This document shows, one piece after another, positions 4,714 to 43,142 of a stretch of 64,000 nt of DNA. The stretch is from positions 30,102,698-30,166,697 of the forward strand of contig CAIIXF020000007.1 in the NCBI GenBank assembly GCA_903813345.2, in the 5' to 3' direction. Each line of letters begins with the position of its first letter. The stretch's first letter is position 1. Under the pieces are notes generated by a model, which saw nothing but the letters and a program-made list of their open reading frames with translations, did not search any database and was not told the origin of the DNA. The DNA is from Owenia fusiformis. Lineage: Eukaryota > Annelida > Polychaeta > Sabellida > Oweniidae. Both the position numbers and the translations under genes were made by a program.

Positions 4714-4803
4714 ATTGTAGGAAAGTCCGCTGTCCAAAGATTAACTGTCGTCACGGGTCACGCCATCGTCAAGGAGAATGCTGTCAGACCTGTAACGAAC
4801 CGA
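4714..4803 (+). CDS. Orphan exon, second half of a von Willebrand C domain
   Basis: A 90-nt open exon bounded by an acceptor (GTTGCAG) and a donor (GTAAGT), phase 1 at both ends. It reads CRKVRCPKINC, then GECCQTCNEP: the C-x-C, CP, CC-x2-C arrangement of the C-terminal half of a VWC domain, as in chordin/kielin-like extracellular proteins. No partner exon is seen nearby. Its phase would allow splicing into the exon at 26397, making it a possible upstream exon of gene A across a 21-kb transposon-filled intron, or it may belong to a gene running off the left edge or be a relic. The domain call is fairly sure; gene membership is not. Confidence 0.6.
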
Positions 4804-20419: not shown

Positions 20420-20735
20420 TTGAAGAGATTCTCCATAGACCCCATGTTAATAAAATCACAAGAAGTGAAATATCTTTGCTTGTATTGGACAGATAATATT
20501 TTCTTTTACTGGGCATATTTTTTAATTTGTACTGTATATAACTATCAGATACATAAGGTGATATGAAAATTGAAACACTAAAGCTGATGAATATTCAAGT
20601 TTAGGGGAACTTTCTAATACCCTGCCATGTTCGGCCCCGAAATTAGCCTCCTGGCGGTGAAACTGGTAACTGCCTATTCGCATCTGGTTTATTACATTAT
20701 AAAATCAGATCATCAGGTGATATACAGATCTAGAA
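20420..20735 (+). repeat. Dispersed repeat, copy inverse to 31495-31785
   Basis: About 310 bp reading GATTCTCCATAGACCCCAT, AAGTGAAATATCTTTGCTTG, then GGTGAAACTGGTAACTGCCT. The reverse complement of 31495-31785 matches throughout with scattered differences. Its interior carries no coding. Confidence 0.7.
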
Positions 20736-23960: not shown

Positions 23961-26396
23961 AATCATCATCAGCAAATAGTTGAAAAAGAACATTTGAAAA
24001 AGGTGCAAAAATGAAAATAAATTTTTTAAAAAAGATTGAAATTTTGAGATTTTTTTTATATTTTTGAAAAAAATAAAAAATGTAACATTTTTTGTTGAAA
24101 AAATTCGAAACTATTGAATATCACTTTTCAAACAATTGAATATCACTTTTGAAGATATCGAATATCACCTTTTAAGACGTGATATTCGATAGTTAAAAAA
24201 TGACATTCGATGACAATGCATTCGGTCAAGCCAAGTAACTTCGTCAACATTCGATATTCGTATGTTCATCAGCATTTACGAAGAATGGTGCCACAATTCA
24301 AGTAAACCTCTGGTTAATTATTTTCAATAAACCTATCAGCAAATGTGTAAATGATAATTTTGATGTTCTGTTACATATTGGTGAAGCAATCTTTGGGATA
24401 TGACCTTTTCTGATTTTCCACTGTGTCCCTGTATACCCTTACTTCAAAAGATGTATGTTATTTGTCATTTTTCATTATGAACCAACCATCGATGTATTTT
24501 TTCTTGTTTACATACAGGATGAACTTTCTGTTTTTAAATATTGCAAGATGGTACATCATTTATTTGTTCATGATAAGGAACAAAGAAATGCGTGTCAATT
24601 TACACTGTAATATCCTACATACTTATATTTCAAGGGTAGTATTGAAGAATTATCAAGAAAAATCCATGTTTTCAAATGGATTCATCCTTGTCAAAGAAGG
24701 TAAATGAGGATATGCGGATTAAAAAACTAACAACATGTTTCAAGTTCTTACAATTCTTGGTTAAAACAAATAATTTGAAACTTGTGATTTCAAATGTAAT
24801 ATCCTACACAATGAAATGTGTTCATATTTGTGAATTTTTTCTTTCGGAATGTACATTGCTGGATCACAGAACCTTGCCTTGTTCGAGATGCACGAAAAGT
24901 GTATTGTTAACACTTGACGTCGTTCGGATATTTGGATGTGATTGACGTTTTCGTTAATCTCCTACCACTGTAACTTCCAACTTAATTTTTGGAAGTCAAA
25001 TGTGATAGTCACGAATTGATATTTAAGTCACACGTTTATGCATACATCATGTGTGTACATTAACTGTTGAATACATGCCGACTTACATTTTTATAAATAT
25101 CCATAATTAACTCAAACCATCAATTCTCGAAACGGTTTATCATATAACCTGGTGAGATTAATGTTTCATTTTAATTCATAATTATGGTATCAGATTTGAG
25201 TATGATATAAGTCGAGGCTTAAACAAAGCAACAGAATTACGTGAAACCTTTTGTGAAAATTCGAACGATTTTTCCAGAATCCTCCTTCAAAGTGTTACCA
25301 AAGTGCTCCCCGGGAGTGGAATTTTCGTCTTGTGTAATTAAAATTATAGCGGTTGGTTTGAATTTTTGTTTGAGTTTATTGCTTACATCTATAAATTTAA
25401 AACCATATCGCCTAATTGAGAGCTACATGCAGATTTTGGCGATCTATCTTTATAAAAGGCTAAATATTGTGAAAAAACAGGAGTTGACACGCTTTCATTT
25501 GGAAATGAAATTTCCTACATAATCGTCGACTCATGTTTAAAAGTCATGAAAACAAGGTTGAACACAAAACATTGACCCGGTTACTGTCTATTTAGCATGG
25601 GATCACTAATGGAAATATTATTAATGACTTAAATCGTTTACAGTAAAATTGTATTCCAAGAAACTTATCAATTTAGAAATGCAAAATGTTCAATTTTGTT
25701 TTTCAATTATAAAAAATGGCACCTGTAGAGAACAACGTTTTCAAAATTATTTAAAACAGAGATATTTACATATGTAACTTTGATTGGCATGTGTCAGGGA
25801 GTAAATAAGAAGAATATGCATTTGATTCTATATCTTGTTCCCAAAGGAGTTTGTTAAGGAACGGTATATCTTAACGTACTTTTATCATCCCGAGCTCATA
25901 CATTTGGAATACTTATTTCGAGAACGCTTTGTTGAGAATGGATTCGAGATGTATTCAAAATTAATACGTCAAAATGTGTATTATCATCTTAAAAACAACC
26001 TCACAAATTATTTTGGAAATCAAAGATGGGCGATTTTTGAGATTTTTATTTTCGAATGTTGAATTAGTTACTTGGCTTGACTGATTATCTCAAGGAAAAG
26101 TACTCTTAGAGATGATGGAATGCGCATTCACCGAACAAAATGCTTGTTCTATTTAAACCCTTGGCCCCACATGTTTGATACATAAATATAATGCGTTTCA
26201 AGACGTGATTAGCTTCTTAAAGATAAAAATATATTTAATAGAAACTCATTTTTTGAATATCTTATAAGTTTAATTCTTTATTGTCCATTTCGAATCGTAT
26301 GCCATGTATGCGTACAGTAACAGAAAAATGCAAATAATAAAAATTCATATCAGTCGTTTGTTAAAAACATGATTTTAATTCACTGCTTTATTTCAG
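23961..26396. other. AT-rich intergenic or intronic DNA
   Basis: Contains short GAATATCAC direct and inverted repeats at 24110-24200. Several open frames of 70-95 codons exist but lack domain signatures, splice-phase partners or compositional support. An upstream exon of gene A (signal peptide) may lie here but was not recognised. Confidence 0.35.
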
Positions 26397-26717
26397 CAAT
26401 TGAATCAGAATTCGCTGACTGCATAACCAAATGTGTAGGTGAGAGTATCGATGACATTGAGAGATGGTTGGAAAAAGCCAAATCTGCAACTAAATGTGTA
26501 GCGAAATGCGTAGTCGACACAATAGAGCAAATAGCACTAATGAGCGCAAAGTTAAAATATATCAATCTAAATGACCTTGGACAGTGCCTGAAAGATTGCG
26601 CCTTGCAAAATCTTATAAAGCTTCCTATCTGGATCGTTAGGTGCAAAACCAATTGGACCTGCTGGATTCTGAAAATATCACTCGTCGCATCGGAATGTCT
26701 CTCCCAATGTGTTCAAG
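26397..26717 (+). CDS. Gene A exon: helical CxxxC-repeat segment
   Basis: A 321-nt exon, acceptor TATTTCAG, donor GGTAGAC, phase 1 at both ends. Its 107 residues have cysteine pairs spaced C-x3-C four times (CITKC, CVAKC, CLKDC, CLSQC) plus C-x5-C (CKTNWTC), between predicted amphipathic helices (for example DDIERWLEKAKSATK). This recalls disulphide-linked helical hairpins. I do not recognise the family. Membership of gene A rests only on strand and matching phase; the next exon is 5.3 kb away. Confidence 0.55.
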
Positions 26718-29700
26718 GTAGACATCAATCCTTATCAAATCAAAAATTGAAAACGTATGGTCGAGTAGATGGAAAAGACGGCTAATACTAGGAATCACTT
26801 AAGCGATATTTAAAGATCAATAGGGACTATTAAAGTACCACAAAGGTTTATTAGGGAATCATTAGGGGGCTATTAAGGGCATACTAGGAAATCAGTAACG
26901 GCTATCAAGAAACCAATTTGGGCTATTAAAGCAACACCAAGGCTTAATAGGGAATCATTAAGGGCTATTAAGAAACCAATTGGGGCTATGCCGAGGCTAA
27001 CTAGGGGATAAGCACGACTAAGACATACTAGAGATTCACAGTGGGCTATTAATAAACCTATGGAATATCACTGAAAATGGTTTACCTTGAAACGCTTAGA
27101 CAAAGTTAATCAGAGCAACCGCCCACCTATTCACCTACCCAGAAATCCGATCACAATATAGCACCCATGGGTACACCTTTCTAAAGTTTGTCACCTGCCT
27201 CATGCATGGCACCTTTGTTCTAAAACAAATATGTACAATATGTAATATTATTATATGATATGTATTATGTCCAAACCCTCTATTCATGCTAAAAGATTAA
27301 ACACGGTATTAAAAAGATTGTTACGAAGGTGTCCGACTGTCCGTCGGTCCGTCCGCAAAAAAATAATATCATTTTTTTTTATTTTTAGCCATTTTACTTA
27401 ACATTGATTTGTCAAACTGTCTCGCGAAATCCACTTTTGGACCATTTGCCTTAAAACCTCTGTCGATAGGATTCCCGTTTTAAGTCATTTTTGTTTAACA
27501 TCAATACGGAAACTCCCCTATGACTCCTGGTTCAAAAACTTGCCTACATTCAAAATGGTCGCCATTTTTGTCTCGTAAAATTCACTGTTGGCCCATTTCC
27601 TAGCGTAACAAAAAATTCAGGCGTCCTGCATTGTAAAAAGCCAGGTCACTGTAAAGAGTAATTGTAGGAAATAATTTTATTACAAAAAATCGGCAAAAAA
27701 TAATATCCATTTTTTTTTATTTCAGCCATTTTAGTTAACATTGATTTGTCCATCTGTTTCGCGAAATCCACTTTTGGACCGTTTGCCTTAAAACCCCTGT
27801 CGATAGGATTCCCGTTTTAAGTCATTTTTGTTCAACAATAGAGAGATTTCGCACATAAGTGAAAGTACAACTTATACGTATACGTATAGTTTAAAGGGTC
27901 ATGTCGAACTATTATATTTACTAAAATCAATTTTAGATTGTACTTAATGGAACATAACTATTCCCGTTATAGAAAAGCTCCATGAACTAGAGACTGTGAA
28001 TGCACTGTCATCTGCACGTGTAGATTATGCACATTATGATTAAATGCTTGCTTCCGTGTCCTTGTAGTTGTAGCGTATTACAAACACGATCCTTTAAAGT
28101 GAGTCATGATTCTTTAAAGTGAGTCATTACATAAACAAGTTGATTATTTCAATGTTTTCATGATCAGTATAAGTTCAATGAACTTACAAAACGGTATATT
28201 TACGTAGATGATAACGTATACAGTTGGATCTCCGTATAAAGATTTGCCTACACGTGTGTGGAACAATTGACCGCAAGCATTTTTTGAAATTAATTGGCTG
28301 AGTGGGAACAGAATCCAATCAAATACTTTTACCATCAATTTGAAACACTAATCAAACCAGTAGGTTCTAGCAATTCCTGGAAACAGTAAATTCAGTAGCT
28401 CAGCATATGACATACAGGGTGTTTCATAACGAGCATCTCCAAAAAGTCAATTTGAGAAGAGATGGGTCTTTAACATATGTACTATATATGAGCATATTTT
28501 ATTCTAGACAAAGAAATTTGGATCAACTAAACATGCTACAATTCAAGAAAGTACAAATGGCATCCCTTTGACCTGTATTTATTACAGTCCGAGAAGATCT
28601 TTCCTGACGAAAAGCCCACATTATGAAACACCTTGTACGTTTACCTATAAGTATAAGTATACGTTATAAGTTGTACTTTCACTAGGTGCGAAATCTCTCT
28701 ACTGAGACGGAATGTAGCCTCTAGAACTGTTGATTCCCGGGTTTTGTCTCTTCATTCTCATATTATCAAGTTATCAAAAAATGATATTTTGATTCAAAAA
28801 GCTACATGTACACCGAAACATTGAAAAGTACACGAAGGCAACCGCATTTTCAATCTATAGTTCTCAAAAGCAGGGTTATTAAAAGCCAGTTTCAAACTGA
28901 AGTTAAAAAGCCGGCTTTTTGAAACCCAGTTCGTAAAATTCAATTTAGAATACTATCTTTCTTTTCTATCTAAACTTCAATCAATTTATGATAAACAAAC
29001 TATCCCGGGCAAACTAAGTGCACCGGGAATAAAATACTCCTGTAAATGAGCTTTATAAGACAATGAAATTAACACTGATTGAAACATAAACACTATAAAA
29101 TCTTCTTTCGATTCCATTACCTGTCATAAAGGTTTTTTAAATACCGACTTTACCGGGAGAAATTTAACATGGGCTTTAATTCAAAGGCAAGAATGTATTT
29201 TGATAACTTATTTAGCGGATTAAAAGCTGTTGGACGTTGCTCCAGTGATTTATATTTTATGATTCTGAATTGAAGTGTAGATTTTAAATGCAATCGAAAA
29301 CATGACCAAAAGAGTCTAGACTTCCAATTACTTTGATCATGAGGAATGGGAAACAATCAAAGCGGCCATATGAAAAAGTAAACGATTGAATTCCTATGCA
29401 TAGACTAATCCAAGATTTAATACGAACGGTGGTAACAGGTTGTTAAATTTATAATACATTCTCAGGAAGAATTAGGTTGCATTGACTCTGAACGTAGAGA
29501 TAACAAGTTCAGCGGTGTAGCCAGGTTTCCGTCAGGGGGAGGGTATCTGCATAAAAAACATGGGTTTGCACAGTTAAGCTTTTTTTATTAGCAACTTATT
29601 GATAACTACAAGGAAGATCTCTCTTCCGCCGGCTTCGGCGTATGAGAGACTCAAGAAAGCAATGTAAAAATATATCAAAAATATCCTCAGATGTAAAAGT

Positions 29701-32700
29701 TTTGAATATCATAATTCTCTTCTATTGCACATTATTTTATGTATAGTTTTTGCCAATGGTCTTTGTAAAATAGAGTTGTTCATAATTGAGCAGTATTTAG
29801 CAAGACTAGATAAAGTATTAAAGTCAGTGATTTTATCTTTGCAAAGTTCAATAAAATCCTTTCGTGTATCAGTATGAAGATCACAGTCAATGAGGATAAA
29901 GGTAAAAAGAACTGCGATACCTACATTCTTTAGTTGTTTAATATAGTCAAAAAGAAGCAATTATAATGTGTGAATATATTTCACACTTACAGAGTATTGC
30001 GTTTGCATATATTTGAGTATTCTTAACTCCACGTATAATCAGTGCTTATTTGTGCTGTTCTACAAATAAAGAGGAGCAATACCTGAATATACAGAGTGTT
30101 CCATATATCACGGTGCCCATGTCAAGCTGCGCGCCTACTTAGGCGCGCAGTTTGTTTCGATCACAAACTGCGTGCCTAAGAACATTGGATCATTTAAGTT
30201 GGAGTCTGTATTTTGAAACGTTATTTAAGGACATTTATCCTGCATTGTTTTCTTGTTCAATGCGTTCATTCTGTGGCGAATATACGAATCTTGCAAATAC
30301 TAGCAAAAACTGTGTGCAAATGAATCTTAGTTTTAAAACATAAGCAGATTAATGGCATTTTCGTCACTGATTTAATGGGAATTTATACGTAAATCGATCT
30401 ATCACTTTAAACATAAATGACAAATACTTTAGACTCGTTTTATATTTAATTCCTTACACATTTATCATGTTTAATTCAAAATATTTCGAAATAAAACAGA
30501 TAATCAGGAGATTAAAAAGAAATAAACCACAAACTGCGCGCCTATTTTAGCCAGAAATTACAATCTGTGCGCATACACTATTAAAACTACATATTATCAT
30601 TGGAATTTCTACAGAGGTACGTGTAGGTGTTTTCGGTGTAGCTTTGGAAATTTTGCTTTATCGTCAGATTTTATGAGATTTTCATATTGAAAGTCAAAAT
30701 GTATAATAGAAATGACAATTAAGTTGGGAACGAAAAAAAACATTTATTTTCAGATCACCATCTTGGTGGATGGACTCTCATAGTGTTTCAATTAGGGGGT
30801 TCTACTATTAGACACATATGTGCCTTGTATGGCGCTTATGTTTTCTAATAATACAAAACAAGCTTGGATAGGCAAGCAGTTTTGCAATATTAGGCACGCA
30901 GTTTGGGAAATAGATATGAATATAGGCGCGCAGTTTGACAAGAAAAATGTTTAAATCACGTTTATGGCGTATTATCGTTTTGAACACAAACTTTGCTGTT
31001 TTAATCAGATGGAGTGATCCTATATATTCTAGCATACACAGACACAATGGCTGAATAAACGGCAAATGACGATAAAAAGACATAGATATAACTTTACACT
31101 GTAAATTTTGAACACAGAAGTTACTTAAGACCCTTATATTGAGATAACTAGGTTTACATCGGGAAAAACATTAAGTACTATGAGTAAATTAAGTTCATCT
31201 TCACAGAATGGTACTATCTTTAGAACGAGACTAACCTTGTATTTTTCGTATTTTGGCTCTTTTTGGGAGTCGTGTCCTCCCCGTCTCACATTTTGAAATA
31301 TGCGCGCAGTTTGTCAGAGTTTCAAACTGCGTGCCCAGTAGGCACGCTGCTTGACATGGGCATCGTGTATATGCAGCGAGTGTTGTCTCTGTAATGTCTC
31401 TGTTTATATGCGCTGAGTATTTTTGCTGATAACTGCACATTACAAGAGATTCTTATTACAAATAGACACTTCTTATAACCAAGCAATATTCTCTATTTTA
31501 TCTAGTGATCTGTATATCTATTATAAAGCATATCGTAATTACGCAAATGCGAGTAGGTAGTTACCAGTTTCACCACCAGCATGGCGGGTATAGAAGAAAG
31601 TTCCCTTTAACTTAAATTACATCTGTTTTAGTGGTTCAATTTTCATGTAGCCCTAATGTATCGAATAGTTATGCAAATTAAAGTATGTCCAGTAAAAGAA
31701 AATGTTATATGTCCAATACAAGAAAAGATATTTCACTTTTTGTGATTTTGTAATATGGGGTCTATGGGGAATCAACCCGAACTAGAAGTCACATTTTCAA
31801 AAATATTAAATTTTCAAAGTTGATAAACAATTTTCGAAACCATAATTTTAGATGTATTTTTACATGTAGATTTCAAATATGACATCACTTTGGCTGATTT
31901 TTGAATATTTAATGATGTAAATCAAGATCATTTCTACTCGCATCTAGTTTATTGCGATAAGTTTATATTGTAACCAAGCCACCTCAAAATACACAAAATA
32001 TTCATATTTCACGTTATTCCATTTTATTAAGCTCTAGCTGTATTAGAGGAAATGTGCCCGCCAGAGACTTGCAAAATGTTTTGCCAATATGGATATAATA
32101 AAAACTCAAAGGGATGCGATATATGTTCGTGTAAGGAAAATCCATGTCGTGTGAGTAAGATGAATTATTTTCTGTTTATGTCGGGCTTTTATCAAAATAT
32201 TTAACACAAATATTAAAAATTGCAATTAAAACAACTCCCATCATTGTCATTGTTCTCATACATGTAACTTATCAAGATTCAAGATTTTATTGTGTTTCAA
32301 TGCAAGCCAAAACTGAAAATTGACTTCCTCACACAATGCAAATCATCACCAAAGTGTTAACCTTCAACTTATACCCAGGCCATTGTTGAGATGTGTTTGT
32401 GTTTCATTAATTTTCGCACGTATTAGTTTTTGCTGATATTATCCCATTGAACCAAATTTTATTAATTGCATTAATCAATACACTCTAGATCATAATTAAT
32501 CATTAGATACGAATAGTTATAATTAAAAATCTACTTTATGATAGACAGATGTTTTGCAAATCAAGTAATAAATCCCATGTGTTGTTTATTGTTCAAGACC
32601 TTGAACAATATGAATTCTATTCAAAAATGAATTATCTTATACTGTACTAGAAACTGTACATGTGCAATCTCGTATATTTTACCTATATATTTCCTTTAAA

Positions 32701-35700
32701 ACTATAGTTTAGGATTTTCGTGTTATATATAAACATTCTTTGTTATCATGCGAAATTGCTGTTAATGTTCTTTATTTTGACATTTCTGAATATGTAATGC
32801 ATAATGAATATGACTATTTCAGCTTACCGATTGTCCACCAGGTCGACCATTTTGTATTGTGAAGGGTAAAGAGGCGGTGTGTCAAAGTAAGTTACCATCT
32901 AGTTAAATTCAATATCGTTCAACAACTGAACTCATCTGATGCAGGTATTATAATAAGGTACAAAGCGTAGAATTAGTCAAGGTTAGAATTTACCGCTCAC
33001 GGCATCATGGCTTTGTGAGGCTCAGAGACATCTTTATATGATATTTTTATGTTCACGTTTTATAAGTGTTTCAAACGAATATACCCATGCCATTTAGCAA
33101 TGATAGACCAGGGCGTTGCTCTTTGCCCTTGTCTGAACTTAATTTATCTCATAGGTTCTTAGGATATGAGTCGTCTTTTTATCACCCTAGGAAAATACAT
33201 TTCATCCGCCGATCACCGGGCTTCAAAATCCAGAATATCTTCTTTCTTTTTACACCCTGCTATAAGCAGTTGCATTTTCCCGATTAAGAACTCGCAATTT
33301 GATTCGCTGTCCCAACACTGCGACAGCAATCATGTGTACGTCATCGGTGCATAATTAGATCACGTGACTCAGTTTAATCAGGCGCTTCAACAGGGGGAAG
33401 AAGGAGGTACGGATTCTGGACACCTGCGTCGGAGGATGCATACATTTAAGATATATCCAATATATTTCGGCTTCAGAATGTAGTAACATCATGTGTGCGA
33501 TGTTCTGTGAATTTGGCTTCAAGATTAGTGCGGATGGGTGTCCAATATGTGCGTGCAATCCGGATCCTTGTTCAGTAAGATACAAACATTTATATCAATA
33601 CCCCAAATTATAAGACATTATAAGACATTAGATAAAATGCAAACATATACGAAAACTTTTAAGTTTTTGACTTCTAACCAAAATAATGAGTATTACTGTT
33701 TCAAAGATTGTTGGTTTATCCATATGGAATATAATCATATATTTGACATCCACTCCCTGTTTTTGGTAAGAATTCAGGGACTGTGTAAACAGTAATTTTC
33801 GTTAATTTCGAGATATTTCTGCAGTATAGCTTTATTCCAAATGAAAGCCAAATTAATTTATAGTAGATTGCAAATATTGTAACGCTTTTCTGATTTGAGG
33901 CTCATGAAATTCAAAATGGCCGCCTTATGTGGGATTTCGCAATGAAATACTTTCCAGATTTTTTCAAAGTATGGCTATATTATACTCATATTGAAAAACA
34001 TTAAAGTATGATTATTCAAACATAGTATTGTCATCATGGTTTGTGCCTTTGATACTCCTGAATGGTCACCCAGATGTTTTTGTCGAAATTCTGACATATC
34101 TCACTGGCGGATCCAGAAGATAACAAGGGGATGGGGGAGGGGTGGGGCATATTTTAAATCTGAAAAAATTGGGCCCCGAAATCCCCAAAGGAGCACGTAG
34201 GTTATCGCAAACAATTTCACACAATTCTAACTTGAATTATAAATATTTTCTGATCATGTGCATGGGTGTATCTTTTGGAACCATTCATTATCTTCAACAA
34301 AAGTATATATAATCAATTTAAGTAAATCAGATATTGACATTGACATTGAGTGATATTGAAGGGGCAATGGACCAATCAACATACTTTTTCAAAAATATTG
34401 ACCTAATTTTCACCAAAAATGCAACCTTTTACTATATTGTTGAATGCATAATTAGAATTTGCTTTGAGACATGTTCTATTTCCTAAGAGGAAAAGTCGGT
34501 TGCTCCTGAATTTGGATGACCAAAATGAACTGAAACCAATGGATAGCATGATATTTTTCAATGGAGAAATAAAATGGGGAACATTTATCTTAAAGCAATT
34601 AAGTTTTTCTTTCGAGAAATATTTGATACATTAAAACAAAGAATAGTAATGCATTAAACAATGTAAAAATGATTGCATTTTATGTGGAAATGAGGTTAAC
34701 ATCTTTGAAAAGTGTGTTGATGGGTTGATTGCTAGTTAAATATCTTCGAGTTTGTTTGACTTTATTATTAGTGTATATAATTTTCTTTGAGATAATGAAT
34801 GGATCTTAGAGATAAACCTGTCTTCATTGTCAGAAAATAGTCATAAACCAAGATATAATCGTCTGACATTGTTTGCGATAACCTACGTGCTCCTTTTGAA
34901 AATGTAAGGCTCATTTTTAGATAATTTGGCCTTAAAAGCCCGAAAAAGCAAATGACCCAAAAGGCCCACTAATTGAGGCCCTACTAATGTTTTACAAGGC
35001 TACCCAAGGAGAGGGGGGGGGGCATGGGCCAGTGTATCTCTAATGTGTGTCTTTTATAATCTGCATATTTTGTTCGATTGGATTTGCCACTCCGTGGAGT
35101 TTTCTAGTTGTGGTTCTTACTTTACAGGTGAAAATCTGTCCGAAAAAGAAACCAGTGTGTGTGGTCAGTGACAAGAAAGCCGTTTGTCAAGGTAATTATT
35201 CGCTTATATTTGACTGTTCCCATATTTTCACTCCCAACAAATGAATCATTTGCTCATATTTATCTTGGAGTACTATTGATAAACACGTATTTAAAATAGT
35301 AATAGATGTTACCCATTTAATTGAAAATACAGTTATGTTTAATTGATTGGGATTATCAATCTCCAACTGAGGCATCTAATTCATATGATTTCAATAATTG
35401 TTACAAAACATTATTATTTTCAAAGAATGCAGTAATGTAATGTGCGACCTGTACTGTCCGTACGGATATAAGAGTGATGATAATGGATGTGCAACATGTT
35501 CCTGTAGCGACAACCCTTGCAAGGTATACATTAAAATTCTATTTTAAATGAGAACCAAATATATGGCCGTCCAAGTAATTAGTCAACAATACCATGTTGC
35601 AATATTAAAGGCAATTATTATTTATCACTGTCATATTTCTCACTCTCTGATTGTTCTTCATCCTACACGTGATGAGGAAATAAGAAAAGATATTATCACT

Positions 35701-38700
35701 TCTGAAAGATGCACAGGTATTTGCGTCCCTAGAGTGAAATATTTGCACAATATATATTTTAATTAGTTATGATCACTTTGAGAAGGGTATTCCTCAGGTA
35801 TTCGTGTACAGAAATGGTTTCGTACCTTTATGTTTTAGATGACTCTCTGTCCGACAGACAAGCCCTACTGTGTGGTGAAGGGAAACAAACCTGTTTGCCA
35901 AAGTATGTTCAATTTGTTTCTTCATATGTTTACATCGCGTGTTCATTTCTTGCAAAACAATAACACAATTTGTGTTTCAATACAGTTGAAGCAATTTTGC
36001 TCTAATTAAAATGAAACCGATGGAACCAATTTTAGACTTGATGAAACTCAAAACTAAGCTTTATTCGCGAATGCAACTAACGCCTGTCGGCTACCGGATT
36101 AACCTACTATTTTATGAGTACCTCGTGTCAAATATGACTTACTATTATCAATACGAAATATACAAAATACTGTAATATGTACACGAGTATAGATAAGTAC
36201 ACCAATAAAATATTTTCAGGTTTTCAATAATGCAATTTTTTCCATTTATAATCGATTGGTTTGTTAAAAAATATACCAAAATACTTAAATTGACTTCAGT
36301 TGTATTTTAATGGATATATTTAGAATGCAGTCCTGTTGAGTGTAGGATGTTCTGTCAATACGGATTCAAGAAGAATTCAGATGGTTGTTCGATTTGTTCA
36401 TGTGAAGAAAACCCTTGCAAGGTACGATAGCAATTATTGTTCAAACACTATGATAGGGTTTTCACGTAATGCTCATTTTTAGTTAACCAGAAGTGGTATA
36501 CGTGTCTTTGTGAATTCATATTAAGTATAATCAAACATACACTGTGCTCATATGATTTATGAGAAATTATACAAACATGTCGATGCAGGTCAAAATTATT
36601 ATATAATATGGCTAAATATAATTACCATTTTTAGAAAAAATCCTGCGGATGCGGAGAGGTTTGTGAAGTCCAAAAGGTGACGTGTGTCACGACCCCGTGC
36701 CTTCCAATAGCCGTATGTGTAGGTATGTAGGATTGACTGGTCACTGGCCAATGTATATATCTAGCAAGTGTTGTTTTTAAGACATAGAAACCATGATCAA
36801 TTCATTTTTTCTAAAAATGATGAAACTGTCAATGTCGCGTACGGCATCCCGTGCCCTATTGAGGCAATTTGTCCTGACATTGATATATTATCTTTGAAAC
36901 AATTGCAAGCATCATTACTATCTGAATTCAGTTGGAAATGCTCTTGATCTACATTTACTTACCGAATATGATAATATCCGGAAACAGTACATTTTGTAAC
37001 TTTAACTGTATTTTGTCATTTCTAGATGACCCCAACCAACTACCATGTGCAAGGCCTAAAAAATCTGCAAATGGTGCCCTGATTTACTGTAGGCTTGGAC
37101 TAAGCACAGATTGTGCTCCTGGATTCAATTGTGTAGGATCTTCAAATGGCAAATGTGGAGTATGTTGTCCATTAAAGCAATGTCAGTACAATGGCAAGGT
37201 GTATAACAATGGGGATCAGTTCCCCTCAGTTGACGGTTGTAATAAATGTAGCTGTCAGCTAGACGGTATAGTGCTGTGTACATTAAAGGCATGCCCTAAG
37301 AAAGACTGCTCCCATAATGGCAAAACATACAAACATGGGTCTAACTTCCCCCGTGGAGATGGATGTAATACATGTTTCTGCACTGATGGAGTTGTTGGCT
37401 GTACTGAGGCATTCTGTGCTCGTAAGTATATACTACTTTCAATTTTCAATCAGGATCACTGTTCCTCAACTAGTTACCTTGTCTTTAACGGAACGCCAAA
37501 ATTAAAGTAAAAAATGAAGGGCAGCCTGTCAGCATTTCACTCTAAGTCAGGTCGCTCTAAATACTCACGTTCGATACAATTTTCCCCATGCTAGTAATAA
37601 TTGAATATCTATTTTATTTTCAGACTGCAAGAAAGATGGCATTCTTTATCCTCTGGGAGCTTCAGTGCCCGGATCATGGCCTTGTGAACACTGTCGCTGT
37701 GTTAACGATCCCGACACCGACATATTGGATGCAAAGATCATATGTGCAATTAAAGGTTGTCCGCCACCGGCTTGTCAAAATCCCGTGACCATGCCTGGTC
37801 AATGCTGTCCTGTTTGTAAAGGTAAACGTCTACATTAGCTGCACTGTGTTTTAAATCTTTTAAGTTAGAATGCACAACGCCAAAAATGCATTAAATGTTT
37901 ATTAATTCCATGGTGATAACTGAAGATCTAATTTAAGCTATAATGTTTCAGGATGCAATCCGATTATGTGCACGATGTTCTGTGAATTTGGCTTCAAGAA
38001 GGATGCCAACGGTTGCGATATATGCTCGTGTGCAGATGACCCATGCAAGGTAAGAAGAAAAAATGATACATAATGATGCATAATTATAACGTTTATTCCA
38101 TACTTTGACGTGTTTCAGGTACATAAATGACTAAATCTATTATTCTATGCAATCAAATGGTCAAATCAATTGTATTCACAAGTCAACAGATATATAACTA
38201 AATTGTACACATCATATATCTAAATGTTTAATATTTGTATCACACATTATTTATTTATATCACATATTATTAAATTATTATTAGTTTAAGAACGTTTAAA
38301 TCCTAGTGATACCACGGGTATAAAAATGTATGATATTGAAAGAAACAGTTAGATAAAATGTGTGCCCTGTATATTTGTAGAGTAAAACGTGCCCAGCCGG
38401 TCAGATATGTAAGAATGTTCAGTGTGTCAAGGCCCCATGTGATCCCATTTGTGAAGGTATGTAGGAGTTTAGTTGTATTAAAATTCTATATAATGTGAAA
38501 CGTACAGATATCCAGTGCGACATACAGTGTACCGTGTAGGCAGGTGTACAAAGTTCTATTGTGTGAGATAATAAACGCCGTGTAGTTAGGTGATACGAAA
38601 TTCTGAAACCCCATTATGTATGAAAGACCGTTTGCATGGACAGTACGTCGCATGTGGCATTATAATAGTTCTATTGTGTGAGACAGAACTTCTGAATAGT

Positions 38701-41700
38701 AAATACCATGTAGACAGAGAATGTATAGTTCTATTGTATGAGACAGAGCTCTCATAAACAATGTACCGTATAGATATGTGATAAGTTATATTGTGTGAGA
38801 TAGAACTATTGTATAGTAAATTCCGTGTAGACAGGTGGTGTTTAGTGCTATTGTATGAGTTCTCATAAACAATGTACCGTATAGGCAGGTGATGTATGTA
38901 GGGTGTCCCGAAAGTATGCACCCCCTAGGCAGACATACACAAATGTTCCCATAGTATGTGTCATTTATCATGTTAAAGCTTATCCAAAGTACTACAAATG
39001 GGAAAAAGTTACAGGTATTTCAAAACTTAGTGTTTGGCCAAAATTAAAGTTAAAATCAGTATCCAGGAAACACCGCTAACCTGAATGTGACCAAAAATAC
39101 GGGTGCAATCGTCAAGAGAGGATGGATGTTGAGTTGTAAAAGAGGTAGGTAAAGGCAGATATTCCAAGGAAACTCTTCTAAAATGCCTGAAAAGGGTTTT
39201 ATGAGGATTATAATATTCCATACCCCTATTTGAAGTGCATTTTGGGTCATATCTGGAAAGAATTGCTGCTGTTAACATGACCAAGGGAGACACGCCAATT
39301 ATTAATTTTGTGTAAAACTAAACTTTAATTTTGGTAAAACACTACATTTTGAAATGCGTGTAATTTTTTCCCGTTTGTGAGTTGAACCATGATACTTGGC
39401 GAATCAATGTAACTTTGGACAAGCTTTGAAATGATATATGATACATACTATGGGGACATTGGTGTATGTCTGCCTAGGGGGGGGGGCATACTTTCGAGAC
39501 ACCCTGTATAGTTCTATTGTACGAGACAGAGTTTTCATAAACAATGTACCGTAAAGGTAGGTGATACAATGTTCTATTGTGAGAGGTAGAACTCCTGCAT
39601 GGTAATGCCGTGTAGGAAGGAGATATATAGTTCTATTTTATGAGACAGGACTCTCATAAGCAATGTACATGTACCGTATAGGCAGGTGACACGAAGTTCT
39701 ATTGTGTAACATAGAACTCCTGCATAGTAAATGCCGTGTAGGCAGGCGATGTATAGTTCTATTGTATGAGACAGAGCTCGTGTAAGCAGGGGGTGTATGG
39801 TTATATTATGTGATATAAGAATGTATAACGCCAAGAATGCATCGAATGCTTGACTAAGTCCCTTGTGACAAATAATGCTGTAACTTATGGTATATATTTC
39901 AGCATGCAGTCCGATTATGTGCACGATGTTCTGTGAATTTGGCTTCAAGAAGGATGCCAACGGTTGCGATATATGTTCGTGTGTAGATGACCCATGCAAG
40001 GTGGGAAGAAATAATTGATACAGTACATATGATTGATAATAATAATGCTTCCTTTACCCTTTATTTGGAAATGGCAATATCAATAACGATCCCAAAAATA
40101 TATGGGATGCAAAAACCTGGTTATGAGCAATATTACGAGATGGGAATGTCTTATTTTGGTAACACGCTTGATCATAACAGTTTGAATTGCATATTTTGAA
40201 AATTTAACTTTAGTTGCTTAGTATCAGACAAAATCAATATCACATATTATTTAAATTAAAGTTTTTCTCAGCTGTAATATACAAACATACAACAAATAAC
40301 TACGGTTATTTTCAAAGCAGATTTCAATTATGTTTCTGAACGTCACCAGGACTTATTTTCCTAGATTTGTAAGTCCCTAGACTTATTTTCCTAGATTTGT
40401 AGGTCCCTAGACTTATTTTCCGAGATTTGTAGGTCCCTAGACTTATTCTCCTACAATCCAAGGAAAATACCTCTATTGAACTTAATCTAACAGGGACGTA
40501 TACAACGGTCACATCGGGTATACCCTGTATATATTTGTAGAGTAAAACGTGCCCAGTTGGTCAAATATGTAAGAATGTACAATGTATCAAGGCCCCGTGT
40601 GATCCTATATGTGAAGGTATGTAGGAGTTTAGCTGTATTAAAGTTATATATTATGAGAGAGAGCTCCAGTATACTATGCCCCGTGTTGGTATGTGGCACA
40701 GTGGGCTTGTTTTAACTTCAATTTTGAACAAAATACTCAATCGGCCGGGCGCAAATGTGACCTAGGCATTAGTGAGAAAGTTCTCTCATTTACCTACTCG
40801 AGGTTTTCTTTAGATAATCTAATTTACATTTACGTGTTGACTTCTGCGTCGAAATATGACACATATTGTACATACGACACATGTGACACTTATTGTACAT
40901 ATATATTCGTGCGACATTGTACTTGATACTTTTATTCTGTAGATGATCCGAACAAGCTTCCTTGCTCTCCTGTGCAAACCGCTAACGGACAGCAAATATT
41001 TTGTGGACGTGGGCCAAGCAGACAAGACTGCCCCCTTGGATCCGAATGTGTGATATCACCCGTCGATGCATATGCAGTATGTTGTCCCAAGAAAGACTGT
41101 GTTCACAATAAAATAACTTACAAGCACGGGGCTAGCTTCCCTCGTGGCGACGGATGTAACACTTGTCGTTGTTCTGACGGAATTGTCCCTTGTACCAAAG
41201 TATATTGTCCAAGTGAGTTAGTGAGCTCTGCATACTCTATACATAGATCTGAGATCCGGCAAAACTACAAATGAAATATCACACAGTCTCCTTTAGATGA
41301 ATCTATCATTCGACCGTCGTTTCCAGCAGCTTCATTTACGTCTAGTATATGTGCAGATGTAGTCCATTATATACAGTATCACATTACATATGAATATATC
41401 AGCTGTATAGTAAGCGTCATCTTCTAATTAAGAATTTGACATATCTTACTCTTTGGCTCTAGAATTTTTGGCCTTTGAAGGGCTTGTTTTAAATGAAATC
41501 ATTGTCGATGGAAAAGGACAAGGTGCAATTATTGGCAAATATCCCTATGGTCAAAATGAATCATTCGTAGGTGTAACATGAAGAATAAAATGTCATATAA
41601 TACTTTGGAAAATATTAAAGTGCTTGGACACACATAAGCTGAGATAGGGATCATTTCGTTCAGTAAGGTTGTATTGACTTACATGGGGCTGTGAACCATT

Positions 41701-43142
41701 GACTTATCATGAGGATATCAGCAGATCCCAATAGAGGCCATTGGTTTCAATTGATTATCACAGAAATACCAAAAATACACTATGACCTGAATCGATTGCA
41801 AACTTAATAATTTCACAATACGACACAAATGGTTTATCTCATCAAATGTGCAAATATGAAGTTTGCAATCGATTCAGGTCATACTTAAAATTAAAAGATT
41901 GTACATTTTTTCATCATTTTTTCCCTACAAAATGGCTATAGAAAAATGCTCCAAAAACAACTTTTACACTTATCAAATATCATACAAGTTTGTAAAACCA
42001 AAGATTATACTATTATATTTCATTATGTAGTAACATATTTGGATAAGATGCAGGGATGCGTAGAATGTAAATGGATTTTGACAGACACAAATATACTTCC
42101 TGGTTTGGAATCTATGCCTCTACACTTCATGATTGAATTATGACCCTAATAAGTGGCCTATACATCAATACAGTGCTGAATATAGGTCAACAAGATACTA
42201 GTGTGCATATAAATGTAATAATTGAAGCAGAATACTCATTTTGAAAAATCAGATGAATTATTTTTTTCCCATAGGGAGATCCCAATGGCGGGTGTATAAG
42301 GTCCTTTGTACAACCTGAATTGAACACATACGTTAGCATCGATATTCCTCAACTAAACACACCTCGGAGTTCAGTATATTGGGGTTTGGTATTCACGAAC
42401 GGATCATTAACATTGGCATATTTCAATATTTGTTGCAACAGAAAATTGTGGACTCACATACTAGACATTATCATTATACTCTAGTATATCAATTAATATA
42501 ATTTTGCTTGTATTCAGATTGCTTTTATGACGGTGTTTATTATGCTGTTGGAGCATCGTACGACGCCACAGACGGCTGTAACAAATGTTCATGTGCATCG
42601 AATGGCAAAACTTTGTGTACATTAATGGCATGTCCACCTTGTGTCCACAATAAAATAACTTACAAGAGCGGGTCTAGCTTCCCTCGTGGTGACGGATGTA
42701 ACACCTGTACGTGTCGTGGTGGAAATGTCGGCTGTACCAAAGCCTATTGTCCTCGTGAGTGAAAAATATCAAACCCTTACACGTGACTCATTACCACCGG
42801 ATATAGTCAGCACATCTCCGTGTGTATCTCAATGGCCTACAAGTGTTCAGAAGGAAGTTATTATGCTATATTGTGTCATGGATAGTTTAATACATTTCAA
42901 TATACACATGGTATAATTTATATGGTAGCCCGGACAGAATTGTTCAAGGGTCACTTTTTCTTTAATAACTTTTTAAATTTCAGTATTATCAAAATCTGAA
43001 TATATGCATATGCTTACATGTAGATTGTTTCTATGACGGAGTCTACTATGCTGAAGGAGCAAACTTCGATGCCACCGACGGCTGCAATAAATGCTCTTGC
43101 TCGAATGGCAACGTAGCGTGTACCCTGAAGGCGTGTTATTAA
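26397..43142 (+). CDS. Gene A: modular cysteine-rich protein with antistasin-like, lustrin-like and VWC modules (20-exon model)
   Basis: Span of a gene reconstructed from exons listed separately; the joined length, 2837 nt, gives 944 residues plus stop. Every exon-exon border agrees in phase. Order: CxxxC exon; antistasin-like + partner module four times; lustrin-like repeat with two short VWC-like modules; full VWC domain; antistasin-like + partner twice; second lustrin-like repeat with one short module; two cysteine-poor exons; three short modules; stop. Such modules are extracellular and often act as protease inhibitors or growth-factor/matrix binders. No signal peptide or start was found, so the 5' end is missing. 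Not matched to a named protein. Alternative: exon 26397 and the two exons at 41463/42275 may not belong. Confidence 0.7.
26790..27075. repeat. About 60-bp minisatellite, second locus
   Basis: Units like GGGCTATTAAGAAACCAATT and AAGGCTTAATAGGGAATCAT in tandem. These are the reverse-complement words of the minisatellite at 18690-19560, so the same unit occurs at two sites 7 kb apart. Confidence 0.65.
27370..27836. repeat. 110-bp direct repeat
   Basis: The sequence at 27388-27498 (AGCCATTTTACTTAACATTG through CCCGTTTTAAGTCATTTTTG) recurs at 27723-27833 with a few changes, 335 bp apart. Noncoding, inside the putative first intron of gene A. Confidence 0.7.
27841..28699. mobile_element. TA-flanked TIR element, 859 bp
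   Basis: TA dinucleotides flank both ends. The left end GAGAGATTTCGCACATAAGT continues GAAAGTACAACTTATACG; the right end is its inverted copy (AAGTTGTACTTTCACTAGGT, then GCGAAATCTCTC), giving inverted ends of about 45 bp. No transposase, so a non-autonomous mariner/Tc1-type element. It contains a second nested MITE at 28415-28635. Confidence 0.75.
28415..28635. mobile_element. MITE nested in the 859-bp element
   Basis: 221 bp from CAGGGTGTTTCATAA to TTATGAAACACCTTG, flanked by TA on both sides (28413-28414, 28636-28637). A related CAGGGT-x-TTTCAT motif occurs in the foldback at 17940/18555. Confidence 0.75.
28700..29708. other. Unassigned intronic DNA
   Basis: No coding exon or RNA recognised. 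GGTGTAGCCAGG at about 29513 resembles the end of the GTAGCCAG-type MITEs seen at 57847 and 58030. Confidence 0.35.
29709..29960 (-). pseudogene. Possible LINE C-terminal fragment
   Basis: Minus-strand frame of 83 codons with ILIDCDLHTDTRKDF, then LSSLAKYC and RPLAKTIHKIMCNRREL. The DC-x-L-x-x-D-x-R segment followed by L-AK-x-I-x-x-x-x-x-R resembles the extreme C-terminus of aquatic-animal non-LTR retrotransposon polyproteins. No RT domain is attached. Tentative. Confidence 0.4.
30109..31367. mobile_element. Non-autonomous TIR element with GCGCGCAGTTTG repeats
   Basis: 1259 bp bounded by inverted ends of about 70 bp: CACGGTGCCCATGTCAAGCT at the left, and at the right the inverted GCTTGACATGGGCATCGTG. 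TATAT occurs on both flanks (30104-30108 and 31368-31372), a likely 5-bp target duplication. The word GCGCGCAGTTTG or close variants recurs in both orientations at the ends and inside (about 30155, 30535, 30893, 30926, 31303 and 31330). No transposase frame. It lies in the first intron of gene A. Confidence 0.75.
31495..31785 (-). repeat. Dispersed repeat, inverse copy of 20420-20735
   Basis: Reads CAAATGCGAGTAGGTAGTTA, then CCAGTTTCACCACCAGCATG to TGGGGTCTATGGGGAATC, the reverse complement of the copy at 20.4 kb. Confidence 0.7.
32038..32150 (+). CDS. Gene A exon: antistasin-like module 1
   Basis: 113 nt, acceptor GCTCTAG (a second acceptor at 32047 would also keep frame), donor GTGAGT; phase 1 in, phase 0 out. 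Reads MCPPETCKMFCQYGYNKNS, then GCDICSCKENPC. The C-x4-C-x3-C-x-YGY-x5-GC-x2-C-x-C pattern is antistasin-like; such domains inhibit serine proteases in leeches and cnidarians. Confidence 0.75.
32823..32886 (+). CDS. Gene A exon: partner module 1
   Basis: 64 nt, phase 0 to 1, acceptor TATTTCAG, donor GTAAGT. Reads LTDCPPGRPFCIVKGKEAVC. The DCPPG-x3-C-x9-C pattern with the preceding PC resembles the follistatin-N/EGF-like segment (PC-x4-CP-x-G-x2-C). Always follows an antistasin-like exon in this gene. Confidence 0.75.
33477..33574 (+). CDS. Gene A exon: antistasin-like module 2
   Basis: 98 nt, phase 1 to 0. Reads CSNIMCAMFCEFGFKISADG, then CPICACNPDPCS. Acceptor GCTTCAG, donor GTAAGA. Cysteine spacing is identical to the other antistasin-like exons. 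Confidence 0.8.
34080..35040. repeat. Foldback element in an intron with a perfect 29-bp inverted repeat
   Basis: The 29 bases at 34187-34215 (starting AAAGGAGCACGTAGG) are exactly inverted at 34868-34896. Outer parts have CACTGGC-type ends and GGGCC-rich, poorly matched arms (34095-34180; 34910-35035). A related GGGCC/AAATGGGCC stretch occurs at 54560-54680. Confidence 0.6.
35128..35191 (+). CDS. Gene A exon: partner module 2
   Basis: 64 nt, phase 0 to 1, acceptor TTTACAG, donor GTAATT. Reads VKICPKKKPVCVVSDKKAVC, matching partner modules 1 and 3 in length and cysteine positions. Confidence 0.8.
35426..35523 (+). CDS. Gene A exon: antistasin-like module 3
   Basis: 98 nt, phase 1 to 0. Reads CSNVMCDLYCPYGYKSDDNG, then CATCSCSDNPCK. 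Donor GTATAC. Confidence 0.8.
35839..35902 (+). CDS. Gene A exon: partner module 3
   Basis: 64 nt, phase 0 to 1, acceptor GTTTTAG, donor GTATGT. Reads MTLCPTDKPYCVVKGNKPVC. The ATG at its start is internal in this model. Confidence 0.8.
36324..36421 (+). CDS. Gene A exon: antistasin-like module 4
   Basis: 98 nt, phase 1 to 0. Reads CSPVECRMFCQYGFKKNSDG, then CSICSCEENPCK. Acceptor ATTTAG, donor GTACGA. Confidence 0.8.
36635..36722 (+). CDS. Gene A exon: partner module 4, longer variant
   Basis: 88 nt, phase 0 to 1, acceptor TTTTTAG, donor GTATGT. Reads KKSCGCGEVCEVQKVTC, then VTTPCLPIAVCV. It carries two cysteines more than partner modules 1-3, so it is an expanded variant preceding the first lustrin-like repeat. 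Confidence 0.75.
37026..37421 (+). CDS. Gene A exon: lustrin-like repeat plus two short VWC-like modules
   Basis: 396 nt, phase 1 to 1, acceptor TTTCTAG, donor GTAAGT. The first 48 residues read DPNQLPCARPKK through CAPGFNCVGSSNGKCGVCCP, matching lustrin-type cysteine-rich repeats (C-x-G-x2-C, then CCP). Two modules follow with C-x-NG-x-Y-x-x-G-x-x-FP, then DGCN-x-C-x-C and a CT-x3-C end (for example GDGCNTCFC, GCTEAFC). These are VWC-like and also resemble pacifastin inhibitors. Confidence 0.85.
37624..37821 (+). CDS. Gene A exon: full VWC domain
   Basis: 198 nt, phase 1 to 1, acceptor TTTTCAG, donor GTAAAC. Reads CKKDGILYPLGASVPGSWPC, then HCRCVN, CAIKGCPPPAC and QCCPVCK. Ten cysteines with the C-x-C and CC-x2-C signatures make this a complete von Willebrand type C domain, a fold often binding BMP/TGF-beta ligands or matrix. 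Confidence 0.85.
37952..38049 (+). CDS. Gene A exon: antistasin-like module 5
   Basis: 98 nt, phase 1 to 0. Reads CNPIMCTMFCEFGFKKDANG, then CDICSCADDPCK. Nearly identical to the exon at 39903, marking a recent two-exon duplication. Confidence 0.85.
38381..38456 (+). CDS. Gene A exon: partner module 5
   Basis: 76 nt, phase 0 to 1. Reads SKTCPAGQICKNVQC, then VKAPCDPICE. Acceptor TTTGTAG, donor GTATGT. Nearly identical to the exon at 40541. Confidence 0.85.
38500..39800. repeat. Intronic minisatellite (about 60 bp) interrupted by a MITE
   Basis: Units such as CCGTGTAGGCAGGTGATG-TATAGTTCTATTGTATGAGA and CATAAACAATGTACCGTATA recur through 38500-38898 and 39508-39800. The array is split by the element at 38901-39505. 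Confidence 0.75.
38901..39505. mobile_element. Mariner/Tc1-type MITE with long inverted ends
   Basis: 605 bp with TA at both borders. The left end GGGTGTCCCGAAAGTATGCA and right end TGCCTAGG-x9-GCATACTTTCGAGACACCC are inverted copies; similarity continues for about 160 bp (ACACAAATGTTCCCATAGTA against TACTATGGGGACATTGGTGT). No transposase motif in the centre. Confidence 0.8.
39903..40000 (+). CDS. Gene A exon: antistasin-like module 6
   Basis: 98 nt, phase 1 to 0. Reads CSPIMCTMFCEFGFKKDANG, then CDICSCVDDPCK. The donor is GTGGGA, weaker than its paralogue's GTAAGA. Confidence 0.85.
40345..40456. repeat. 30-bp tandem repeat in an intron
   Basis: About 3.5 copies of a 30-bp unit (ACTTATTTTCCTAGATTTGT, then AGGTCCCTAG). 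The minus-strand open frame across it is a by-product of a period divisible by 3. Confidence 0.8.
40541..40616 (+). CDS. Gene A exon: partner module 6
   Basis: 76 nt, phase 0 to 1. Reads SKTCPVGQICKNVQC, then IKAPCDPICE. The flanking intron (GTATGTAGGAGTTTAG) is also conserved with 38457, so the duplication included intron sequence. Confidence 0.85.
40720..40776. mobile_element. Right-end fragment of the CCTAGGTCACAT-family element
   Basis: Reads TTTTGAACAAAATACTCAAT, then CGGCCGGGCGCAAATGTG and ACCTAGGCATTAGTG. It matches the right end at 14457-14493 and gives the fuller terminal sequence. No left end is nearby. Confidence 0.65.
40943..41212 (+). CDS. Gene A exon: second lustrin-like repeat plus short VWC-like module
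   Basis: 270 nt, phase 1 to 1, acceptor TTCTGTAG, donor GTGAGT. Reads DPNKLPCSPVQTANGQQIFC, then DCPLGSECV, AVCCPKKDC and SFPRGDGCNTCRC ending CTKVYCP. Parallel to the exon at 37026 but with one short module instead of two. Confidence 0.85.
41463..41566 (+). CDS. Gene A candidate exon without cysteines, part 1
   Basis: 104 nt, acceptor GGCTCTAG, donor GTAGGT, phase 1 in and 0 out. Reads FLAFEGLVLNEIIVDGKGQG, then AIIGKYPYGQNESF. Phase fits between the exons at 40943 and 42275. No family recognised; could be a non-coding chance frame. Confidence 0.45.
42275..42431 (+). CDS. Gene A candidate exon, part 2
   Basis: 157 nt, strong acceptor (TTTTTTTCCCATAG), weak donor GTTGCA, phase 0 in and 1 out. 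Reads GDPNGGCIRSFVQPELN, then YVSIDIPQLNTPRSSVYWG and LVFTNGSLTLAYF. The alternating pattern suggests a small beta domain. The donor is the weak point; the frame stays open to about 42482. Confidence 0.45.
42518..42754 (+). CDS. Gene A exon: two short VWC-like modules
   Basis: 237 nt, phase 1 to 1, acceptor TATTCAG, donor GTGAGT. The first module has CFYDGVYYAVGASYDATDGC and CTLMACPPC. The second has CVHNKITYKSGSSFPRGDGC and CTKAYCP, closely matching the module in the 40943 exon. Confidence 0.85.
43024..43142 (+). CDS. Gene A last exon: final short VWC-like module and stop
   Basis: 119 nt, phase 1 in, acceptor CATGTAG. Reads CFYDGVYYAEGANFDATDGC, then NKCSCSNGNVACTLKACY and TAA. A paralogue of the first module at 42518. 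No membrane segment or GPI-like tail follows, so the product should be released. Confidence 0.85.

What the first reader, a model, noticed from the sequence alone, without database searches (positions are those of the whole stretch)
26397..43142. Mosaic extracellular gene combining antistasin-like, lustrin-like and VWC modules
Six antistasin-like exons (98-113 nt) alternate strictly with partner exons (64-88 nt), followed by lustrin-like and VWC-like exons, all in matching phases over 17 kb. This order of protease-inhibitor-like and ligand/matrix-binding modules is one I do not know from a named protein. It could be a secreted inhibitor, a matrix or mucus protein, or a BMP modulator.
Basis: partly seen in the sequence, partly recalled or inferred. 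Interest (0 to 1): 0.75.

Follow-up and report, generated by a model that had tools for sequence, protein, structure and literature searches.

The report
Secreted many-headed protease inhibitor gene
This is one of a family of invertebrate genes for a secreted, cysteine-rich protein that strings together protease-inhibitor units of two types with matrix-type units; the parts are known, and I found no earlier description of this combination.

Summary
The exons are real and form one gene: 20 exons from a signal-peptide-like ATG to a stop, 854 codons, starting 25 kb upstream of the window. A tandem copy just upstream has the same 20 exons with equal lengths (dN/dS 0.25).

Corrections. The true 5' part is a signal exon and a split VWC (second half at 4714-4803). 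(2) Partner exons 1-3 are the N-terminal half of the 10-cysteine antistasin domain; 4-6 are a variant. (3) Six "VWC-like" modules fit the published "ancestral" pacifastin-like inhibitor domain, though they resemble VWC halves about as well.

Eight of ten loci read carry antistasin, a lustrin-like segment and two pacifastin-like modules in that order. The lustrin label is weak. The antistasin P1 site is the most variable column; P1' is nearly fixed. Best reading: a secreted, multi-headed serine-protease inhibitor, probably matrix- or mucus-bound; inhibition is inferred, not shown. New variant of a known kind.

The parts
4714..4803 (+). Exon 3 (phase 1-1): second half of the N-terminal VWC-type domain. 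Exon 1 (signal-like, C7:30077622-30077701) and exon 2 (first half, C7:30089903-30090042) lie upstream of the window
32038..32150 (+). Antistasin exon 1 (C5-C10; P1 Lys)
32823..32886 (+). Partner exon 1: N-half of antistasin domain 2
33477..33574 (+). Antistasin exon 2 (P1 Ala; Met in the tandem copy)
35128..35191 (+). Partner exon 2: N-half of antistasin domain 3
35426..35523 (+). Antistasin exon 3 (P1 Asp)
35839..35902 (+). Partner exon 3: N-half of antistasin domain 4
36324..36421 (+). Antistasin exon 4 (P1 Arg)
36635..36722 (+). Variant partner exon 4 with extra cysteines; no Pfam match
37026..37421 (+). Lustrin-like segment (below Pfam cut-off) plus two pacifastin-like/half-VWC modules (P1-P1' Leu-Lys and Glu-Ala)
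37624..37821 (+). Complete 10-cysteine VWC domain
   Evidence: (35.4 bits, profile 1-57 of 57)
37952..38049 (+). Antistasin exon 5 (P1 Thr)
38381..38456 (+). Variant partner exon 5 with extra cysteines
39903..40000 (+). Antistasin exon 6 (P1 Thr)
40541..40616 (+). Variant partner exon 6 with extra cysteines
40943..41212 (+). Lustrin-like segment (29.3 bits when cut out alone, cut-off 27) plus one pacifastin-like/half-VWC module (P1-P1' Lys-Val)
42518..42754 (+). Two pacifastin-like/half-VWC modules (Leu-Met, Lys-Ala)
43024..43142 (+). Last exon: pacifastin-like/half-VWC module (Leu-Lys) and TAA stop; AATAAA/ATTAAA-type signals at 43390 and 43511

Best explanation
The gene encodes a secreted, multi-headed serine-protease inhibitor of a matrix-associated kind. 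Shown from sequence: a signal-peptide-like first exon, a split N-terminal VWC-type domain, six antistasin cores (three in complete canonical 10-cysteine domains), one further full VWC, six modules that fit the ancestral pacifastin-like definition, two weak lustrin-like segments; purifying selection between tandem copies; other loci with the same core order. Inferred: antistasin units, and perhaps pacifastin-like units, present P1-P1' loops that bind serine proteases substrate-like, each head with its own specificity (basic P1 for trypsin-like enzymes in antistasin units 1 and 4; Leu P1 in three pacifastin-like units for chymotrypsin-like enzymes). VWC and lustrin-like units would hold the protein in extracellular matrix, mucus, cuticle or tube. 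Other loci carry other P1 residues, giving a set of inhibitors with different targets.
For: One open frame over 20 exons in both tandem copies, all 20 exon lengths equal; dN 0.019, dS 0.076, ratio 0.249, 38 nonsynonymous and 38 synonymous differences. A signal-like exon of fitting phase at 4 of the 4 loci searched, chosen among several candidates in the two C7 regions because it alone occurs in both copies. Antistasin profile built across the partner/antistasin junction: the five PDB sequences listed at E<=1 are antistasin, two hirustasins, guamerin and bdellastasin, though only antistasin aligns over both halves. Half-module profile: best PDB hit is the trypsin inhibitor SGPI-1, then the VWF E' module (38 listed); in the model of exon 37026-37421 (mean pLDDT 72, pTM 0.39) SGPI-1 fits at 1.6 A over 31 columns, rank 36, E 0.63. 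Antistasin P1 is the most variable column (3.11 bits, next 2.37), P1' is Met in 26 of 29 (33 domains, 30 unique). Ancestral pacifastin-like domains are reported linked to lustrin and VWC, mainly in lophotrochozoans and basal metazoans (PMC13388995: abstract, three sections and passages).
Against: No activity or expression data. Four of six antistasin P1 residues in this copy are Ala, Asp, Thr, Thr, not basic. Antistasin units 1 and 5 lack the canonical N-half. P1 is also the top column in the unrelated poly-antistasin gene on C170, though barely (3.29 against 3.26), and not in the C9 poly-antistasin gene, so high P1 variability may be a general property of the domain. In hand-picked groups of close paralogues P1 ties with two other columns at 3 changes. 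The half-modules match VWC at or over its cut-off in 5 of 6 cases, align full-length with VWF E', and the best fold matches are VWF, NEL and fibronectin, none a protease inhibitor as far as I recall. Constraint is weaker at the two ends of the gene (dN/dS 0.44 and 0.54). Lustrin support fails genome-wide.
Confidence: 0.57

Rival explanations
1. A structural matrix, tube, mucus or biomineral protein in which the small disulfide-rich modules serve as a stiff scaffold and no longer inhibit proteases.
For: Lustrin-like segments, weakly supported; antistasin with WAP domains in Lottia shell matrix (PMC3374290, passages) and a separate Lottia shell protein listed with domains VWC/pacifastin (PMC4094399, table rows); 4 of 6 P1 residues not basic; half-modules fold like VWF/VWC/FnI modules; high P1 variability could be relaxed constraint.
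Against: P1' stays Met in 26 of 29 while the adjacent P1 is the most variable column, which is odd for a pure scaffold. Does not exclude inhibition within a matrix.
Confidence: 0.28
2. A CRIM1- or chordin-like BMP modulator: VWC domains bind TGF-beta/BMP ligands and the antistasin units are spacers.
For: Core order VWC, four antistasin, VWC-type modules recalls CRIM1, which has an IGFBP motif, six VWC, four antistasin-like domains and a transmembrane segment (PMC11922885, introduction passage; the order within CRIM1 is recalled).
Against: No IGFBP match in the protein, and none of the 5 IGFBP matches in the genome is on C7; the protein ends right after its last module; CRIM1_C has no match in the genome (but nothing rang in the controls either, so uninformative). 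Several paralogous loci is unlike CRIM1, single in zebrafish.
Confidence: 0.08
3. The 26397-26717 segment is a lineage-specific cassette exon added to this copy.
For: Open frame of 107 codons, AG/GT ends, symmetrical phase 1-1; still open although only 45 percent identical to its nearest relative.
Against: A genome-wide protein search finds only itself and three places in one C12 open frame, so nothing at the tandem copy or other family loci (9 candidates, all scored). DNA homology to C12:3368014-3368088 and 3368327-3368518 runs across both proposed splice sites, and on the right the C12 counterpart is open coding-like sequence. It sits in a repeat-rich stretch with no collinear counterpart in the tandem copy.
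Confidence: 0.05
4. Two adjacent genes: antistasin-lustrin-VWC (to 37821) and a second antistasin-lustrin block (from 37952).
For: Block 37952-43142 repeats the module order and is extra relative to the other loci in the stretches fetched.
Against: Only 130 nt separate the exons, with donor and acceptor in matching phase, in both tandem copies; by eye I see no signal-like frame in the 130 nt.
Confidence: 0.02

Closest known systems
Leech antistasin-type inhibitors (antistasin, hirustasin, guamerin, bdellastasin)
   Same: Same antistasin core cysteine order; partner plus antistasin exon aligns with antistasin 1skz over both halves, with the other leech inhibitors over the C-half only.
   Different: PDB chains of 48-119 residues, one or two domains (recalled), without lustrin-like, VWC or pacifastin-like modules.
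Ancestral pacifastin-like proteins (PMC13388995)
   Same: Six cysteines, Asn after C2, Gly in the C4-C5 loop, C5-x-P1-P1'-x-C6, C1-C2 loop of 18 within the paper's 13-20; linked there to lustrin and VWC modules.
   Different: 'Antistasin' has 0 occurrences in that paper's main text; classical pacifastins have a 9-12 loop.
CRIM1
   Same: VWC modules and four antistasin domains in one protein; VWC on both sides (recalled).
   Different: No IGFBP match, no membrane end seen; has pacifastin-like and lustrin-like modules.
Lottia gigantea shell proteins with WAP and antistasin, and Lotgi1|171918 (antistasin-like, also similar to lustrin A)
   Same: Cysteine-rich shell-matrix proteins with antistasin units (PMC3374290, passages).
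   Different: WAP in place of VWC/pacifastin-like units; [quoted passage not shown]

Membership tests
Antistasin-type inhibitor | Antistasin core above Pfam cut-off | tested here: met
   6 stretches, 131.9 bits, cut-off 21.2
Antistasin-type inhibitor | Complete 10-cysteine domain | tested here: met
   For part of the units: the pattern is found 4 times for 6 cores, 3 canonical and one with a variant partner; two domains in a row align with 1skz, E 0.00035; one alone E 0.025
Antistasin-type inhibitor | P1 suited to a serine protease (P1 position recalled) | tested here: inconclusive
   Lys, Ala, Asp, Arg, Thr, Thr in this copy
Antistasin-type inhibitor | Inhibits a protease | not testable with these tools
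   Needs protein
Classical pacifastin | C1-C2 loop of 9-12 residues | tested here: not met
   18 in 6 of 6 modules
Ancestral pacifastin-like domain (PMC13388995) | Six cysteines, C1-C2 loop 13-20, Asn after C2, Gly in C4-C5, four-residue C5-C6 loop | tested here: met
   6 of 6 modules; definition from sections 6, 9, 19. Pfam Pacifastin_I alone: 4 of 6 over 27.9 bits, one at 27.9, one at 26.1, aligned from residue 11-20 on only; VWC in the same modules: 5 of 6 at or over 27.6. The paper's own structure test per domain (TM-score 0.5) was not repeated module by module
VWC | Complete 10-cysteine domain above cut-off | tested here: met
   37624-37821: 35.4 bits, 1-57/57. The N-terminal exon pair: 39.2 bits in 2 stretches, with extra cysteines. 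The six half-modules are not complete VWC domains
Lustrin_cystein (PF14625) | Above Pfam cut-off of 27 bits | tested here: inconclusive
   29.3 and 20.5 bits cut out alone; 24.4 with flank; not listed for the whole protein; locus not among 9 genome places at E<=0.001
CRIM1 | IGFBP motif | tested here: not met
   None in the 854-aa protein at E<=1; 5 genome matches, none on C7
CRIM1 | Transmembrane segment and CRIM1 C-terminus | tested here: inconclusive
   Protein ends one residue after the last cysteine; no membrane predictor was run; CRIM1_C genome search empty but without a ringing control

The most novel reading that the evidence does not exclude
An expanded family of matrix-held inhibitors in which two warhead types (antistasin and ancestral pacifastin-like) sit in one chain, with the antistasin P1 site diversified from copy to copy and unit to unit on a nearly fixed P1' Met. 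It could derive from a CRIM1-like ancestor (VWC, four antistasin, VWC) that lost its membrane anchor and gained lustrin-like and pacifastin-like modules.
Probability: 0.25. Interest if true: 0.6.

Novelty: new variant of a known kind. Interest (0 to 1): 0.42.

Why it matters
It is a concrete case in which antistasin and pacifastin-like inhibitor modules share one secreted chain with VWC and lustrin-like modules, bearing on the recent proposal that pacifastins began as matrix-embedded modules (PMC13388995). The tandem pair, which differs at one of six P1 sites on a 96 percent identical background (34 of 854 residues differ), is a natural test of inhibitor specificity.

Tried and rejected
Rejected: the 26397-26717 exon as part of the gene. 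Rejected: partner exons 1-3 as a separate module type; the partner given to Pfam alone matched nothing, and in position they are the antistasin N-half. Rejected: filing as CRIM1, see membership test. A hydrophobicity scan for a phase-1 signal exon in front of the 26397 segment (window 4800-26400) listed none; the same scan on C12 listed one weak candidate.

Led nowhere: phmmer of the 26397 segment in PDB, 4 weak hits; NCBIfam, none; Pfam scan of the C12 relative, scattered weak hits and one just over cut-off to Methyltransf_9 over 29 residues, which I take as chance. CRIM1_C in the genome had no ringing control. Paper searches: 'antistasin'+'lustrin'+'VWC' 0 papers, 'antistasin-like'+'VWC domain' 0, 'antistasin'+'lustrin' 1, three of six terms 2. 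In (10 of 10 listed; 15 of 42; 6 of 6; 15 of 236; 10 of 16; 12 of 553) I saw titles and abstract starts only, and none names this architecture. The library lacks most subscription papers and holds no preprints.

Species: not established. Assembly size 498 Mb and contigs C7 and C9-C12 of 36.7-39.8 Mb resemble the 505.8 Mb, 12-scaffold annelid Owenia fusiformis (PMC9977687, passage), but nothing here shows identity.

The first P1 count was typed by hand: one row had a residue trimmed to keep spacing and odd rows were left out. I replaced it, which takes all 33 pattern hits from the ten loci unedited; it still misses the first antistasin units of C11a and C11d (Pfam hits at C11:4712340 and 4860052). 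The two C9 domains were joined by eye.

Full report
What was checked. Their sizes match the report. They lie in G000:C7:30102698-30166697.

True extent of the gene. A tandem copy lies upstream on C7. Similarity between the two begins at 30059789 and 30076848, and the first unit ends where the second begins, so this is a direct duplication. A signal-like first exon ending in phase 2 is found at 4 of 4 loci searched: C7:30060558, C7:30077622, C10:29583180, C11:3076986; other candidate frames were listed, but on C7 only this one occurs in both copies. The next exons form a VWC-type domain split in two; in the window copy they are C7:30089903-30090042 and window 4714-4803. With them the frame runs from ATG to TAA over 20 exons, 2565 nt. 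In the tandem copy all 20 exon lengths are equal and its frame runs one codon further to a stop. Divergence: 38 synonymous and 38 nonsynonymous differences, dS 0.076, dN 0.019, ratio 0.249; by block the ratio runs from 0.06 to 0.54, highest at the two ends. Of 19 introns, the 11 of similar length were compared and 10 differ in length. The window copy spans 68 kb against 13 kb because of insertions: window 11390-31950 has no collinear counterpart in the tandem copy.

The first exon of the finding. The 26397-26717 segment has four matches in the genome at E<=0.01: itself and three on C12 in one 358-aa open frame. DNA similarity to C12 includes window 26336-26410 and 26554-26742, crossing both proposed splice sites; on the right the C12 side is within the open frame and the window lacks 5 bases. 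I conclude that it is a fragment related to another gene inside a repeat-rich insertion. It is still an open frame, so a working exon of something is not excluded.

The partner exons. For domains 2-4, the end of one antistasin exon holds one cysteine, the partner exon three, and the next antistasin exon six. Together this is the antistasin 10-cysteine order. A pattern for it matched 4 times in the protein, three of them canonical. A single spliced domain hits antistasin 1skz weakly (E 0.025); a longer stretch reaches 0.00035 over two domains. A profile of 8 domains (3 from this gene, 3 from its copy, 2 from C9 joined by eye) lists five PDB sequences at E<=1, all leech antistasin-type inhibitors, but 4 of 5 align over the C-half only. 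Partners 4-6 carry extra cysteines; those given to Pfam had no antistasin match, and their nature is open.

The VWC-like modules. Six modules match both Pacifastin_I and VWC. Pacifastin_I scores higher in 5 of 6 but aligns from residue 11-20 on; VWC is at or over its cut-off in 5 of 6. A profile of 14 modules has SGPI-1 as best PDB hit, then the VWF E' module, which aligns over the full length; 38 sequences are listed, pacifastins, VWF, NELL/NEL, mucins and one CCN protein. The model of exon 37026-37421 (pLDDT 72, pTM 0.39; module part about 73-88) finds VWF, NEL and fibronectin F1 first, then VWC, with pacifastins at E 0.63 and weaker but close local fit. PMC13388995 (2026; abstract, sections 6, 9, 19 and passages seen) defines ancestral pacifastin-like domains with a C1-C2 loop of 13-20 residues, linked to lustrin and VWC. 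All six modules fit. Whether such domains and VWC halves differ in more than name is not settled here.

The family. A 260-aa piece gave 144 genome matches, most of them single modules. I read ten loci. Antistasin, lustrin-like pattern (a cysteine pattern, not a Pfam match) and two pacifastin-like modules follow in that order on one strand in 8 of 10 (C7 pair, C9, C10a, C11a-d); C10b shows one antistasin and two pacifastin-like modules, C9b one pacifastin-like module. The second block (37952-43142) is seen only in the C7 pair within the stretches fetched. PF14625 at E<=0.001 lists none of these loci.

The reactive site. In known inhibitors P1 follows the sixth cysteine (recalled). Over 33 domains (30 unique) it is the most variable column, 3.11 bits with ten residue types; the next is 2.37. 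P1' is Met in 26 of 29. Controls: the C170 poly-antistasin gene also puts P1 first but level with others (3.29, 3.26, 3.18); in the C9 poly-antistasin gene it ties for third. Between the tandem copies one of six P1 sites differs, Ala against Met. This is suggestive, not proof, of diversified specificity.

Verdict. The modules are known; the combination was not found in the papers searched (several with capped lists). All statements of function are inference.

Noticed in passing
window 26336-26742; G000:C12:3367978-3369051: A fragment related to a C12 open frame of repeated cysteine-containing units, with no convincing Pfam match; the C12 frame may be an undescribed secreted repeat protein.
   Followed up: partly
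window 46041 onward; C7:30076334-30076841: The next gene downstream starts with a hydrophobic N-terminus and seems to go on with immunoglobulin-like exons (my reading, no domain search); its first exon was co-duplicated and stands at the end of the first tandem unit.
   Followed up: partly
window 16706-17407 and 21080-21771: Large inverted repeat, arms 85-96 percent complementary, about 3.7-4.7 kb apart, perhaps the ends of a DNA transposon.
   Followed up: no
window 14500-16400, minus strand: Looks like retrotransposon gag/pol remnants; only looked at.
   Followed up: no
window 20265-20661 and 31578-31954: Inverted copies of one repeat that also occurs at C7:30070741-30071148.
   Followed up: no
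G000:C170:2894-9616 and G000:C9:36291843-36295983: Two other genes made of long rows of antistasin units (one open frame of 2285 residues on C170).
   Followed up: partly
G000:C6:31288727-31387573: A cluster, apparently duplicated, with many VWC, pacifastin-like and lustrin matches and one antistasin match; another possible branch of the same kind of protein.
   Followed up: no
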